Under the pieces are notes generated by a model, which was not told where the DNA came from, did no database searches, and saw only the letters and a program-made list of their open reading frames with translations. A stretch of 64,000 nucleotides of DNA, taken from NCBI GenBank assembly GCA_934045905.1, contig OW203773.1, positions 21,811,246-21,875,245 on the forward strand, written 5' to 3'. Shown one piece after another: positions 18,701-27,700 of this stretch (within the stretch, counting starts at the first letter, position 1; every line of letters begins with the position of its first letter). Origin of the DNA: Leuctra nigra. Lineage: Eukaryota > Arthropoda > Insecta > Plecoptera > Leuctridae. Both the position numbers and the translations under genes were made by a program.

Positions 18701-21700
18701 CACATTTTCATTTTGCATACAATTTTGTATTTACACGACGCAACTTTCTGTCACAGAACTTAAAACATGTTCTATAATTTCCATTCAAGAAGTGTGACAC
18801 AGAAGTGTGGTACAGATGTAAATTGGGGTTGGGAAAGAGGCGCTTTTAAGAATGAACTATTTTAGATAAGATTGACGGCAATTACGATTCAAGTATTTTA
18901 ATTTTATCTCAAGTTATCTACCTATAACTTATACCTAAATATCAATTTTACATTATTACGTAGGTACACTCGACCAAACAAAACTTGAACGTTGACCAAA
19001 TTTGAATGCCTGCTGGTCATGTCCCATAACCAATCAAAGCTTGTTATTATCATTGAAATGTGAGGTCACCTACTAGAGTGAGATAATGAGATCGCTTAGA
19101 CTGGCTTCTGATGGTGCGATCTTACATTTATCAGCCTATCAGATTTATTGAACGTTCAAGTTTTGTTTGGCCAAGTGTACCTACCTGTAACTTGTAAGTG
19201 TAGACTATTATAATTTGTATGGTATGTTTTGTTTTGATGCCCACACGAGCTCCTCGCTGTCATTTAAAACCGATCAATCGTCTTCCATTGACCTCATAGA
19301 AAGTTGTGTGGAATGTAAACAATCTTGGCGATCAACCGGTTGTAATTGACATTATACACGTGTTGTCGCTAGTACAATTATCTCTTAGAGTTTCAGGGCA
19401 CGATATTAGTTTGAGGGTCCACTCAACGAAATTATAGTTTAGATTATTATCTAATTTGTATCGTAGGTGATCATTATCAACTAGTAGGGTTGGTTCTGTT
19501 AAAACAAACTTCCTCAAGTCAAATAGGTATCAAGACCACTTGTAACTTTTTTCGGTTTCTTTCCAGACTTGCTTACACACAAGTAGTGTTGGGACTTGAA
19601 AATTTTCAAGACCTGTTGAAATGTTTTATGAAAATTTTCATGAAAATACTCATACCCTTACGAAAAAGTACTATTGAGTACCAATAGTTTTTTAAAATAA
19701 CTATTAAAAACCAATAGTTTTTTGGAATAACTATTACGACTCAATAGTTTACTACTGAGTTTCAATAGTTCTTTTATCCCGTCACGTAATTACTATTGGC
19801 AACCCAATAGTGAATTCATGCAACTTGACAGTTTTTGAAAATAACTATTGGAAACCAATAGTGTTTTGGAATATCTATAACGACTCAATAGTTTACTACT
19901 GAGTTCCAATAGTTCTTTTATCCCGAGATATACTTACTATTGGCAACCCAATAGTGAATTCATGCAATGTTACAGTTCTTGAATATACTAGTTCATTTTT
20001 ATTTGTTTCAATTTTTTAATAAACATAAAAATAAAAATTATGTATGAAGCTACCAACAAAGATACATAGTGAAGTGTATAAAAAAATGCAAATATGAAGT
20101 CAATTAACTCAAATAACGACTCGTCTAGAGCAGTTTTAATAACATTGTAATTATTTTTAACAATTTAAATATTGTATAACAATACCTGCAATCAAGCTGA
20201 TTTTTTGTATGGCACAAAACATTGAGAAAAAATAAAAAATATATTGGAAGTAAAATATCCCTTTAAATCCTTTAGTTAAAAAATATATATCGATATTAAC
20301 AAAACTCTTGATAAAAATAAAATGGCGGCCTAAAATGTGTTAAACTTTCATTTTTGAGTTACGTAGGTGGACATTAATAATAACGTCAAAAAACATTTTT
20401 AGAAATAATTAGTTGGGGTTGTATACCCATTTTTTCAGTTAAGTGACTGGAGTATTATTTTGTTTGAATCGGTGGTTTGAATATTCCCGCGATCAGTCAC
20501 GTGATTGCATTCAGCGCTCTCTGGGTCTGGCTGGAAACAGCTGGTTCAAAAGTGACGGTTGGGTGCGGTTGGGTTGGGTCTGTTTACAAAGCAGGCAACC
20601 GCTGCGTATCCTCTCGTTTTTGTAGTTTGAAATGGTTTGAACGTCATATCAGTGATTTTAATTAGTTAATTAATTTCACAATAAAATATTTGTCTCTGCT
20701 ATGTGGTCAATACCATTTAATTCGACAGAAGTAATGAAATATGGACGGATATTTGTCTCCAGCCTCAATGGTGGTGAGTAATCTTTCTTTCACTATTATT
20801 ACTAAACAAGTAGTAGTAGGTACCTAGCTAGATACCTACCTAGGAAGATGTAGGTGTATAGATAGTACTTTAGTTTTATGTACCCAGAACACTTGTGATG
20901 TGAACTACCTACCTATCAACCTCACAGATTTGTGAATGCAGTAATTGAAATGGGAAAAATACAATAATTAGACTACCTACTACATACCTACCTACTACCA
21001 CACCTACTAAATTATACTGATTTCTTACAGGATAACACAGGCCGACCACCAAGCAGAGGCGAATGCAGAAGGCACACAGATGGATGGAAATGACATACTA
21101 CCTACTACTAGGTAGTACTAGGTACCTACTAGGTGCATATCACGGCATTCCATACTGTAAGTGTACCGACCTATCACCTAAGCACCTATACTAAAGTCAC
21201 TTCTACACAATTAGCCTAGCACAATCAAAACGTATAGTACTAGATAGGTAGTACTACCTATGATCGTATAGGTGCACTGATCGTTTGCAACCCGAGCATC
21301 GATACTAACACTCAAAAATAGAATGATTTCTATTGCTCCGTTCCTACTCGAACGTCGGTTTTTGTTATTGTGCGTGCAAAAAACACTCGGGTTGGTATAC
21401 ACGATTGTTGCAAACAGCCGTATGGTTGGTATATGACCCGGACGTTTGTGTCTAGATAGCTAGTCATAGAGGTGTCAAGAAGTACTGCATCTAGGATTCT
21501 ACGATGAAATTGCAGTTGTAGGTTCCGTAGATTTTAACATGGCAATTGTAATCGCTAAACTGAGGCTGTCGGCCAGTGTGAAAGCCTCCAAGAAACATTT
21601 TGAAATAGGTAGGGATGGCACCCGGTAAATTTTACCGGTAAATTAACCGATTATTAATTTACCGGTAAAAAAAATTGTAAATTTTGTTTTTTTGATCCTC

Positions 21701-24700: not shown

Positions 24701-27700
24701 TTTAGCAATTATCCTACTCCATAAAATGTTTGGAAAGGTGCTTTATTAATAAAGTATGCTGTGATTTAAAAAAAAAATTAATGGAGGTACATTACATTAT
24801 TATGCGTGATAGAAATATGTTTAAAAATGTCGGTGCACCTACCAGAAAAATAAAAAAAATAAAAAAATAAATTTACTTTTCTCAGGATTCAAAACATTGA
24901 AAATGTTCAACACTACACACAAGCTTCTTTTGTTATGCTATAGCAATGCAAAAAGTTTGTGATTCTCAAAGAGAAAATAGAAGGGATTCTATTCATATTT
25001 AAGATTTCTGTGGAGCTTACAAATTGCACCTGCGGTCTGACAAAGCACATGTCAGCTGTTTTGAATTATGCCAACAATGCGTCTCAACAATGAGTGTCCA
25101 CATTCAAACTGTACTACAAGCAAGAATGTGCAAGGGTGGATGGAAATATTATGATTATTTCACGCAAACTGCAGGTCGTCATCGTGTTGTAATGTCATTT
25201 TGAACATTATTTGCAAGTTCTTGCAGTAAGTGATGAAATAATGCGATACGTTCTGTTTACATTTTAATAATGCAACGTTTCAACCGACTGTAATCGGCAT
25301 CCATCACGCTATTACAAAATCAATACTTTGGGTCTGATTTCTGAAAGCAATTCATGAACACATCTTGACGTGGTTGAGACTTGAAAATATTTAATTCATC
25401 ATTAAATGTGTTGACTAAAGAAATAGCAGATTATTAACCATTCGTGTTTTTATAACTTGCAGTGTTGTGTCGATTTGACTAAAACTCTGCATTTGTTATC
25501 TCCATTCTTTCCAAAAGTTATTGAGACGTGTAACTTAACCTTTTCACTTTGATTGTCCTGTTGTAAAAATAAATCCCAGAAAAAACACTCCGTGTAAAAA
25601 TACCAGCCAAGTCTCTTTAACTATAAAAAAAAATAGAAGAAATCTAAAAATTCAGCACTGAAAAGGAGTGATATCAAAAAAGGAGCCAAGTCAACGAATT
25701 TTCCAAATTTTAATCGTACCATTGAAATAAAAATATCAACCCCCGAGAAATACTTAAAAAAAGGACTTGGCGCATCGTTTTTTTAAAGACACTTTTCTAT
25801 CCTAAAAGTATAGGAAGAACTCTACAAGTATATTTTCCTGAGTATATCACATTCATTATCGACGAATCATACTACGTTTTAATATAACTAGTACTCTTAC
25901 CTACTGGCAGTTTTGGTATTTTGTCAATATTCAGAGGAAATAAACGGATAAACGAATAACGAATAAACGGAAGCGGCCTAGTCTATTCGTTATTGCCACT
26001 ATTTCTAGGGTCATATTAATCAATCATACTTCTCAATATCGTGACTGAGGGAAATAGCGAAAGCGCTCATTACAAGAAGGCCGTCAATGAGATTTGTATA
26101 AGTGACTAGTGCACTGAGCCATGCTGCTCAAATAATTACTGACTAGATTTTTATCTAAAGTAATACGTTATGTAATTTATGAATTTTTTTGGTATAAAAT
26201 GTTAATTAATAGCAATTAATTACACGGCGAGAAGGTTCAAAGTATAATGCTGTAGTAGGTATGTTGATGTACCCACAAAACTATAGGTACCTACCAATCA
26301 CAAACACAACTGTTCTGTATTTATTGCTTGTAAGACAATGCTATGTTTCTTTGCGTACTTATATTTAAATTTAAAATATTTTACAGAATGTTCAATATTT
26401 AATTTGAAAGTTTTGTCCCAATTTTTCTAGGCATTTCTGAACTACGTAGTATGTGAGTGGCATAAGCTTAAGAATAGAAAAATGTCTTTAAAAAAACGAT
26501 GCGCCAAGTCCTTTTTTTAAGTATTTCTCGGGGGTTGATATTTTTATTTCAATGGTACGATTAAAATTTGGAAAATTCGTTGACTTGGCTCCTTTTTTGA
26601 TATCACTCCTTTTCAGTGCTGAATTTTTAGATTTCTTCTATTTTTTTTTATAGTTAAAGAGACTTGGCTGGTATTTTTACACGGAGTGTTTTTTCTGGGA
26701 TATCACTTCTTTTGTTAGTTTATTCATACAGCTTGTAGCACATGTCCGAGCAGGGACTAATTTCTTTAAAAAAATACGCCTCAACCGATTTGGTTACTAT
26801 GAAAAGTTGCGTTTGGTATAAGATGAAAATGATTATCCAAGAAGAATAGCTTAAGTTTCGTTATAATCGATCCAGCCGTTTTCGATACATGACGTCACTT
26901 CCGGTTTTGAAATAGCGGCCGAATTCCGGTATAGGTAATAAGAAAACAATCTAGTTTTATCTAGTTGATACCTTCATGAACGACCATCTGAATTCCTAAT
27001 CCCTATATTTCCGTAAAATCGGTCATGCCGTTTGTAATATATGACGTCACTTCCGGTTTCATTTAGTGGTTCCTGCCGCCATTTCCGGTACCATTAATTT
27101 ATTTATTCATTTTTCACAATTGATTTTTCAAATAAATAGCAGAATGAATACGCAGGAGCTAGTTCAGTTGCAATCGGTACAGGCGTTTTAGATATATGAC
27201 GTCACTTCCGGTTTCAGGAATGGCGGCCGAGAACACTGCTACCTTGAATATATAAATTGTATTGTCTATGTTACAATGTAAGTTAATTATGTACGTATTT
27301 TAAGTATAATTTGTTGAAATAAGTTAAATATTGCGTATTTATGACGTCACTTCCGGTTTAGAAAATAAGAAAATAATATTTTTTTTATTGATACTTCATA
27401 TAGATGACCATCTAAATCGAATGGCGCTAATTTCGTTCTAATCGGTCCAGACGTTTTTGAGTTATGACGTCACTTCCGGTTTCAAAATGGCGGCTTCCGG
27501 TTGGTTTTATAAAAAGGCACCTCAGACGCCAAAAGTGCACATGTGGTAAAAATTTCAGGTCGATCGGTTCAGCCGTTTAGGCTGTGGCGGTGATAGCGAC
27601 GTTTCGTGATATCAGAATCATCATCATCTTCAGAATCAGAAAGTGGTGTAATTTCACTGTTTTCTCGGTCCTCTAGCGCGCAAATGGCATAACCTATTGT

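What the first reader, a model, noticed from the sequence alone, without database searches (positions are those of the whole stretch)
19584..24923. Three-level transposon nest with a 4.95-kb TA-flanked element of unclear superfamily
A hAT element (8-bp duplication CACACAAG on both sides, 5.3 kb apart) is split by a 4,946-bp element with 23-bp terminal repeats starting CCCTTACG, flanked by TA. Both its ends are packed with ACTATTG/CAATAGT motifs, including a 144-bp tandem unit. That element in turn holds a second hAT copy (duplication GAAATAGG). The boundaries are exact because an uninterrupted relative of the outer hAT sits at 33481. The TA target plus CCC start and motif arrays do not match a family I can name, and no transposase was recognised.
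Basis: partly seen in the sequence, partly recalled or inferred. Interest (0 to 1): 0.75.

Follow-up and report, generated by a model that had tools for sequence, protein, structure and literature searches.

The report
CACTA-like transposon with BEN-domain gene
The nested element is a young, non-autonomous jumping gene of the animal CACTA (TRC) kind, and its larger relatives in the same genome carry, besides their transposase, a second gene for a BEN-domain protein that may recognise the repeat arrays packed into the element's ends.

Summary
The three-level nest is real. The middle element is not a TA-targeting transposon of unknown superfamily. Fifteen complete copies examined in the host genome (<1% mismatches to a reference copy) have 2-bp duplications of seven different sequences (TA in 4 of 15); nine have paralogous empty sites. 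A 13.46-kb element with identical 23-bp ends (C7) and a 14.47-kb relative (C1) encode a tnp2 (Transposase_21) DDE transposase; its model resembles RAG1/Transib. CCC termini, 2-bp duplications and tnp2 place the family in TRC, the animal branch of CACTA/EnSpm. The window copy is a non-autonomous derivative.

New here: C7 and C1 carry a second gene, opposite the transposase near the right end, ending in a BEN domain; the window copy keeps its frame-broken last exons. BEN exons of about seven diverged lineages were found, most of them beside TRC-type ends. The end motif is lineage-specific (CCAATAGT, CCAATTGT or CAGTAGT), one copy lying in the terminal sequence itself. Drosophila BEN sites are CCAATTGG and CCAATAAG, so I propose that the BEN protein reads the arrays, as TnpA does in plant En/Spm. 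That step is inferred; BEN similarity hardly follows the motif groups. My literature searches showed no BEN-carrying CACTA element.

The parts
19576..19583 (.). left copy of the 8-bp duplication CACACAAG of the outer hAT-type element
24916..24923 (.). right copy of the 8-bp duplication CACACAAG
19584..24915 (.). outer non-autonomous hAT-type element, split by the TRC element
   Evidence: ends TAGTGTTG../..CAACACTA and uninterrupted relative at 33481-33786
19655..24600 (+). middle element: non-autonomous TRC (animal CACTA/EnSpm-type) transposon, 4,946 bp (about 4.35 kb without the inner hAT); 15 complete copies examined in the genome, this one included
19653..19654 (.). left copy of the 2-bp target duplication (TA here)
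24601..24602 (.). right copy of the 2-bp target duplication (TA here)
19655..19677 (+). left 23-bp terminal inverted repeat CCCTTACGAAAAAGTACTATTGA; includes the first copy of the array motif
24578..24600 (-). right 23-bp terminal inverted repeat
19670..19973 (.). left subterminal array of CAATAGT/ACTATTG dyads, with the 144-bp tandem unit
   Evidence: 13 exact motifs in 400 bp against a shuffle mean of 0.09
24383..24585 (.). right subterminal array of CAATAGT/ACTATTG
   Evidence: 8 exact motifs in 400 bp against a shuffle mean of 0.15
19988..22964 (.). interior without detected DNA similarity to the 13.46-kb relative; holds the inner hAT
   Evidence: similarity only to the left end and its array and to element positions 3311-4946
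23347..23561 (+). remnant of the BEN-domain exon (exon C) of the element's second gene; its frame is interrupted ahead of the domain, at the same place in all 15 copies
   Evidence: Pfam BEN 24.5 bits for the open frame 23387-23587; copy comparison; 71% protein identity to the C7 exon
24008..24135 (+). remnant of the last exon (exon D) of that gene; joining it at the GT/AG sites raises the BEN score from 24.5 to 37.1 bits
21602..21609 (.). left copy of the 8-bp duplication GAAATAGG of the inner hAT-type copy
22179..22186 (.). right copy of GAAATAGG
21610..22178 (.). inner non-autonomous hAT-type copy; relative at 9180-9800
33481..33786 (.). uninterrupted relative of the outer hAT-type element (duplication GCTGTAAC), serves as empty site

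Best explanation
The middle element is a young, non-autonomous member of a TRC (animal CACTA/EnSpm-type) transposon family. SHOWN: it inserts with duplication of 2 bp of varying sequence; two full-size relatives with the same or closely related ends (C7, C1) carry a tnp2 DDE transposase on one strand near the left end and, on the other strand near the right end, a second gene ending in a BEN domain; the window copy lacks the transposase and the front of the BEN gene and keeps only its last two exons, frame-broken. INFERRED: it is moved in trans by a transposase such as that of the 13.46-kb C7 element, which cuts at the CCCTTACG termini. INFERRED, about even odds: the BEN protein is the accessory factor that binds the subterminal CCAATAGT dyads as dimers or multimers and gathers the two ends, the job TnpA has in plant En/Spm.
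For: Same 23-bp ends in 15 complete copies with 2-bp duplications TA, AA, TT, AT, AG, CA, TC (15 of 15), plus AG and GA in the two large elements; empty sites for 9 of 15. The other 14 copies differ by 0.16-0.96% from a reference copy. C7 (13,463 bp, identical TIR) encodes a 744-aa transposase: 156 homologues at E<=1e-3, 93 of the 120 listed carrying PF02992 by my count; D179 and E515 invariant and D260 at least 90% in 30 sequences; model pLDDT 88 with 21 PDB matches at E<=1e-3, 20 RAG1 and one Transib. C7's second gene: four exons at GT/AG sites give an open frame of 436 codons, first exon not found; Pfam BEN 39.9 bits. BEN exons at 10 loci, 9 of 10 at or above the Pfam cut-off. Transposase C7 against C1 dN/dS 0.14. 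CCAATAG is the most end-enriched 7-mer (43 in seven ends, 1 in the interiors), and the motif differs by lineage both in the array and in the terminal 22 bp. Known BEN sites are TCCAATTGGA and CCAATAAG, and Insv binds as dimer and multimer (PMC6911014, PMC6317261; passages).
Against: Pfam Transposase_21 scores of the two transposases lie below the curated cut-off (21.9 and 24.7 against 28.6 bits). CAGTAGT does not look like a known BEN site. The C5 BEN exon scores 13.3 bits, below the Pfam cut-off. Between C7 and the window copy the BEN part of the exon (88.7% identity) is hardly more conserved than the introns beside it (86.9 and 82.6%). The BEN part of the gene found no relative at E<=0.1 in the large protein collection, so the gene is not shown outside this genome. 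Of 41 sequences held (window and 40 loci), tblastn finds transposase only in C7, C1 and, as a fragment, C5; the loci of other BEN lineages were fetched only in part, and the genome-wide transposase search did not complete.
Confidence: 0.88

Rival explanations
1. The array motif is read by the transposase itself (or by a host factor), and the BEN protein does something else, for example binds host chromatin or insulates or regulates the element's promoters.
For: The first motif copy is part of the terminal repeat, where a transposase should bind. C7 and C1 share the motif and a 78%-identical transposase although their BEN exons are only 38% alike. In plants TNPD interacts with TNPA and stabilises its DNA binding (passage in PMC1636069), so the two roles are not cleanly separate.
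Against: Two of three lineage motifs overlap known BEN-solo sites (CCAATTGT with CCAATTGG; CCAATAGT with CCAATAAG), and dyads of such sites suit a dimeric BEN protein.
Confidence: 0.4
2. The BEN sequence in the 4.35-kb family is a host gene fragment captured by a non-autonomous element (Pack-type transduplication).
For: The interior segment 19988-22964 has no detected similarity to the large relative and looks, by eye, promoter- and exon-like; host BEN genes are known in animals.
Against: The BEN exons and both neighbouring introns align at 76-89% with the C7 element at the same place relative to the right end, and a diverged BEN gene sits in the same position and orientation in C1. At E<=1e-3 the own-genome search returned 27 distinct loci, of which 25 have a TRC-type end within 12 kb, read or as a pattern hit.
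Confidence: 0.05
3. The element is a Tc1/mariner-type (TA-specific) transposon, as its own flanks suggest.
For: TA on both sides of the window copy and an empty site fitting one TA.
Against: Only 4 of 15 complete copies have TA; full-size relatives carry a tnp2 transposase.
Confidence: 0.01
4. BEN-carrying elements are a mosaic: right halves with BEN genes are exchanged between TRC lineages, so the association is an old but reassorting module.
For: C7 and C1 are about 79-91% alike in DNA over the left array and transposase, but their right ends are about 68% alike over short stretches and their BEN exons are saturated at synonymous sites (pS 0.86 against 0.52 in the transposase).
Against: Only two full-size elements were compared; faster evolution of the right half cannot be excluded.
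Confidence: 0.35

Closest known systems
TRC elements (SmTRC1 of Schistosoma; TRCs of Tribolium and Aedes), animal/fungal branch of CACTA/EnSpm (PMC1636069; abstract and passages seen)
   Same: TIRs beginning CCC, 2-bp target duplication (found in 7 of 14 SmTRC1 copies there), Transposase_21 transposase, a tandem-repeat region, truncated copies
   Different: A second gene with a BEN domain and CCAATAGT-type arrays are not mentioned in the passages seen; full-size elements here are 13.5-14.5 kb (C1 includes a LINE) against about 4.7-9.2 kb
Spongebob, CACTA/TRC with horizontal transfer (PMC4298943; passages seen)
   Same: CCC start, 2-bp duplication, non-autonomous derivatives
   Different: No intact transposase there; no second gene in the passages seen
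Plant En/Spm (CACTA)
   Same: Two proteins needed for transposition, TNPA and TNPD, which interact (passage in PMC1636069); subterminal motif arrays bound by TnpA (recalled)
   Different: TIR core CACTA; 3-bp duplication (recalled); TnpA has no BEN domain (recalled); one alternatively spliced transcription unit instead of two genes on opposite strands
BEN-solo proteins Insensitive, Elba1/2; BEND6
   Same: BEN domain (BEND6 4.6e-4 and Insv 6.1e-4 by sequence against the PDB); palindromic CCAATTGG-type sites, dimer and multimer binding for Insv (PMC6911014, PMC6317261; passages)
   Different: Host chromatin/insulator factors, not transposon genes
RAG1 / Transib
   Same: Overall fold of the transposase model (Foldseek TM normalised by target 0.51-0.61 for RAG1, 0.38 for Transib)
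   Different: 12-14% sequence identity; different termini and target duplication length (recalled)
ISL2EU (PHIS)
   Same: 2-bp duplication
   Different: AT target (A|AT|T), TIR usually starting GG, THAP and YqaJ proteins (PMC4482050, passages)

Membership tests
TRC (animal CACTA/EnSpm) | TIR beginning CCC | tested here: met
   CCCTTACG at the left end of 15 of 15 complete copies and the right end of 14 (L022 reads CCCTTACT), and in C7; CCCTTAAG in C1; CCCTTATG at the right ends of C4, C13 and C4b
TRC (animal CACTA/EnSpm) | 2-bp target site duplication of free sequence | tested here: met
   15 of 15 complete copies plus C7 and C1; empty sites for 9 of 15
TRC (animal CACTA/EnSpm) | Transposase_21 (tnp2) DDE transposase in full-size elements with the same ends | tested here: met
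   C7 744-aa and C1 751-aa ORFs; 61% identity to a JGI protein named 'Transposase family tnp2' that passes the cut-off; their own Pfam scores, 21.9 and 24.7 bits, are below the cut-off of 28.6; DDE conserved
TRC (animal CACTA/EnSpm) | Transposase within the window copy itself | tested here: not met
   No match by tblastn in the window; it is a non-autonomous derivative
Plant-type CACTA | TIR core CACTA | tested here: not met
   TIR is CCCTTACG
BEN domain | Pfam PF10523 at or above the gathering score of 23.2 bits | tested here: met
   9 of 10 exons: window 24.5, C7 34.8, C1 30.8, C4 24.3, C9 27.6, C13 23.6, C4b 25.5, C7b 25.5, C11 23.2; C5 only 13.3
BEN domain | Sequence-specific DNA binding of the encoded protein | not testable with these tools
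   needs a binding assay
Tc1/mariner | TA target duplication in all copies | tested here: not met
   4 of 15
ISL2EU (PHIS) | AT duplication and TIR starting GG | tested here: not met
   AT in 2 of 15; TIR starts CCC (definition from PMC4482050)
piggyBac | TTAA target duplication (recalled) | tested here: not met
   flanks
hAT (outer and inner element) | 8-bp target duplication with short TIR | tested here: met
   CACACAAG, GAAATAGG, GCTGTAAC
hAT (outer and inner element) | hAT transposase in an autonomous partner | not tested
   not searched

The most novel reading that the evidence does not exclude
A lineage of animal CACTA transposons carries its own BEN-domain protein as a TnpA-like second transposition factor, and each lineage has its own 'password' (CCAATAGT, CCAATTGT, CAGTAGT), repeated in the end arrays and built into the terminal repeat, which BEN protein and ends change together. 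The BEN-solo insulator proteins of animals and the BEN genes of viruses would then have a plausible source or relative in transposons, and their site CCAATTGG would be a transposon-end motif by descent.
Probability: 0.35. Interest if true: 0.8.

Novelty: new variant of a known kind. Interest (0 to 1): 0.62.

Why it matters
Animal CACTA/TRC elements are little described beyond their transposase in the papers I saw. A second, BEN-domain gene in diverged lineages gives the group a candidate accessory factor, could explain the otherwise puzzling motif arrays, and offers a natural series of lineages in which to test which protein reads the ends. It also links transposons with BEN-domain insulator proteins. 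The young, nearly identical copies and a full-size relative with identical ends suggest recent activity.

Tried and rejected
Tc1/mariner (TA-specific): rejected, TA in 4 of 15 copies. ISL2EU: considered from its 2-bp duplication; rejected on AT target and GG start. piggyBac: rejected, no TTAA. Host-gene capture as origin of the BEN exons: rejected for exons C and D because C7 and C1 have the gene in the same place. Viral and prokaryote collections hold no exact TIR match; nine viral-contig stretches matched a peptide pattern of the transposase but none was a relative. The protein search with the window BEN gave nothing, nor did the C7 BEN region (107 candidates). A BEN structure model was not run: exon C alone lacks the end of the domain. 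My first thought that weaker BEN hits might be host genes was tested by fetching five of them: three show a TRC-type end (L034, L035, L036), L038 has a BEN exon 94% like that of L034 but no end within the 4.7 kb, and L037 shows no end. The genome-wide transposase search could not be done.
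Full report
1. The observation. The nest is as described. The outer hAT-type element has the 8-bp duplication CACACAAG (19576-19583, 24916-24923) and an uninterrupted relative at 33481-33786 with its own duplication GCTGTAAC; the inner one has GAAATAGG (21602-21609, 22179-22186) and a relative at 9180-9800. The middle element 19655-24600 has perfect 23-bp terminal inverted repeats, 27 bp with the flanking CATA/TATG, absent elsewhere in the window at up to 3 mismatches. 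Of exact CAATAGT and ACTATTG occurrences in the window, 16 of 21 and 6 of 8 are in the element, 21 of these 22 in its ends; in the terminal 400 bp the two strands together give 13 (left) and 8 (right) against shuffle means of 0.09 and 0.15. Many form dyads ACTATTG-N5..8-CAATAGT: 12 inside at up to 2 mismatches, 4 with 2 mismatches in the rest of the window.

2. Copies in the genome. The window lies in a 536-Mb, 144-contig assembly; a search with the left 301 bp gave 26 matches, 16 of them over the whole query at 99-100%. Twenty loci were fetched. Fourteen of them plus the window copy have both ends within the stretch; of the other six, L021, L024 and L026 have their far end outside the fetched piece, L028 is the left part of the large C7 element, and L025 and L027 had no matching right end. 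The 15 complete copies are 4,303-5,621 bp long, insertions included; 14 differ by 0.16-0.96% from the fifteenth, L016, over aligned blocks. All 15 are flanked by perfect 2-bp duplications, but of different sequence: TA 4, TT 3, AA 2, AT 2, AG 2, CA 1, TC 1. Joining the flanks with one duplication copy removed found paralogous empty sites across the junction for 9 of 15 copies (window, L009, L011, L012, L013, L014, L018, L019, L022). The best is L022 against L025, 198 bases without gap at 98%; the weakest is L014, whose match runs only 13 bases beyond the junction, and several carry small indels. The other six (L010, L015, L016, L017, L020, L023) had no such site among the sequences held. Hence a 2-bp, sequence-free duplication, not a TA target. 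One other complete copy (L009) shares the inner hAT but has different flanks and duplication, so the composite moved after the inner insertion.

3. Full-size relatives and superfamily. A pattern search with the TIR (up to 2 mismatches) gave 52 places and none for the reversed control. Two far-apart pairs were read: C7 (13,463 bp, identical TIR, duplication AG) and C1 (14,471 bp, TIR variant, duplication GA, with a LINE inserted inside its left end). Each has a long minus-strand ORF (744 and 751 aa). C7's finds 156 proteins at E<=1e-3 among the 7,994 candidates scored; 93 of the 120 listed bear PF02992 Transposase_21 by my count. The direct Pfam scores of C7 and C1 are below the curated cut-off (21.9, 24.7 against 28.6 bits), while the closest homologue (61% identity) passes. 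In 30 aligned sequences, C7, C1 and 28 of the hits, D179 and E515 are invariant and D260 at least 90% conserved, with a CxxC at 279-282. The model (mean pLDDT 88) matches 21 PDB chains at E<=1e-3: 20 RAG1, one Transib. CCC termini, 2-bp duplication and Transposase_21 are the traits given for TRC elements, the animal branch of CACTA (PMC1636069, abstract and passages; also Spongebob, PMC4298943, passages). The window family is therefore a non-autonomous TRC.

4. The BEN gene. In the window copy the frame 23387-23587 scores 24.5 bits against Pfam BEN; adding the next exon at GT/AG sites raises it to 37.1, and the closest solved structures are BEND6, Insensitive and Bsg25A. The frame is interrupted upstream of the domain at the same place in all 15 copies, and no similarity to the upstream exons of the C7 gene was detected, so this copy should not make the whole protein. 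In C7 the gene is more complete: exons A 9282-9585, B 10378-11042, C 11461-11677 and D from 12083 give an open frame of 436 codons with, by eye, a coiled-coil-like start and a repeat-rich middle, and a C-terminal BEN domain (39.9 bits). The first exon was not found and no transcript was seen. BEN exons were read at further loci: C1, C4, C9, C13, C4b, C7b, C5, C11; counting the window and C7, 9 of 10 reach the Pfam cut-off, C5 does not. They fall into about seven lineages (window/C7; C1; C4; C9; C13 with C4b and C7b; C5; C11), 31-53% alike between lineages. In C7, C1, C4, C9, C13, C5 and C11 the exon is followed by a GT donor in phase 1 at the same place (read). An own-genome search gave 30 matches at 27 distinct loci, 18 of them window-family copies including the window itself. 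A TRC-type end was read or hit by pattern within 12 kb at 25 of the 27, two of these (C3, C9) resting on the pattern hit alone; C7b (L038) and C11 (L037) showed none in the 4.7 kb fetched. C1's own BEN exon was not among those matches and was found by reading its ORFs. Of the 41 sequences held, tblastn finds transposase only in C7, C1 and, as a short fragment on the expected strand, C5; the other BEN loci were fetched only in part.

5. Selection. C7 against C1 transposase: dS 0.90, dN 0.12, ratio 0.14. BEN exons between the C7, C1, C4 and C9 lineages are at saturation at synonymous sites (pS 0.77-0.97) with pN 0.39-0.49, which fits constraint but gives no ratio; C7 against window BEN gives 0.26 over 55 codons. 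Against strong constraint on that branch, the BEN part of the exon is 88.7% alike between C7 and window, the introns beside it 86.9 and 82.6% (all); the window copy is decayed. C7 and C1 are much closer in the left half than at the right end, which hints at exchange of modules.

6. A lineage code in the ends. Six ends of window, C7, C1 and C4 carry CAATAGT (7-16 exact copies per 400 bp), the C5 right end CAATTGT (7) and the C13 and C4b right ends CAGTAGT (9 each); shuffle means are 0.01-0.54 and the largest shuffle count is 4. The same letters stand at positions 16-22 of the terminal sequence (CCCTTACGAAAAAGTACTATTG, CCCTTACGAAAAATCACAATTG, CCCTTATGAAAATTTACTACTG), so array and terminus change together; for C5, C13 and C4b only the right end was seen. 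Insensitive binds TCCAATTGGA and ELBA CCAATAAG (PMC6911014; PMC6317261, passages); in the CAATAGT ends the preceding base is C in 43 and T in 34 of 80 sites. This suggests that the BEN protein reads the arrays. The comparison with known BEN sites was made after seeing both.

7. Mechanism. Shown: 2-bp target duplication, recent spread, ends shared with full-size relatives, a tnp2 transposase, a BEN gene in both full-size relatives. Inferred: transposition in trans by the tnp2 transposase through cut-and-paste at the CCC termini; BEN protein dimers bound to the dyads bring the ends together or control promoters near them, as TNPA does in maize (TNPA and TNPD both needed, passage in PMC1636069; TnpA's binding of subterminal motifs is recalled). 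I give the BEN-reader step about even odds.

8. Novelty. TRC elements are known. For BEN genes in them, searches for 'BEN domain' with transposon+transposase (5 papers), CACTA/EnSpm (88 with at least two of three terms, 15 listed, 'BEN domain' absent from all 15), CACTA (2), transposable element+TIR (2) and DNA transposon (2) returned no paper whose title or listed start of abstract describes such an element; of these I saw passages only of PMC5704228, which concerns bracovirus BEN genes in Lepidoptera. The library holds open-licence papers only, and Repbase reports were not searchable. Hence: new variant of a known kind. The host was not identified.

Noticed in passing
L030 (C1:66129637 onward), element positions about 40-2145: A LINE-like stretch (reverse-transcriptase-like ORFs, read by eye) sits just inside the left terminal repeat of the 14.5-kb TRC element, between the TIR and its motif array.
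   Followed up: no
L028+L029 against L030+L031: C7 and C1 TRC elements are about 79-91% alike in their left half but far more diverged at the right end with the BEN gene; possible exchange of modules between transposon lineages.
   Followed up: partly
window 19988-22964 (minus the inner hAT): About 2.4 kb of the young 4.35-kb family has no detected similarity to the large relative and contains, by eye, a GC-richer promoter-like stretch and an exon-like piece ending in a splice donor near 20741-20773; its origin is unknown.
   Followed up: no
L011 (C12:20361600-20369600): One copy inserted into an array of an 82-bp tandem repeat, giving many empty sites.
   Followed up: yes
L012, L013, L014 (C9, 26.9-30.1 Mb): Three copies inserted into copies of the same dispersed repeat family on one chromosome.
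   Followed up: partly
L037, reverse complement 2115-3594: Array of a TGATTTG-bearing unit (spacings about 38 and 102 bp) downstream of a BEN exon; no TRC end found there.
   Followed up: no
window 28619-31714: LINE ORF of 1,031 aa with endonuclease and reverse-transcriptase domains.
   Followed up: no
window 18035-18060 and near 33434: Two C homopolymers, the first 26 long, the second of similar length just upstream of the uninterrupted hAT relative.
   Followed up: no
L012 and L020, at the splice donor of BEN exon C: Both copies carry the same 8-bp insertion TAGGTACC and the same 1-base deletion, marking a sub-lineage with its own source copy.
   Followed up: no
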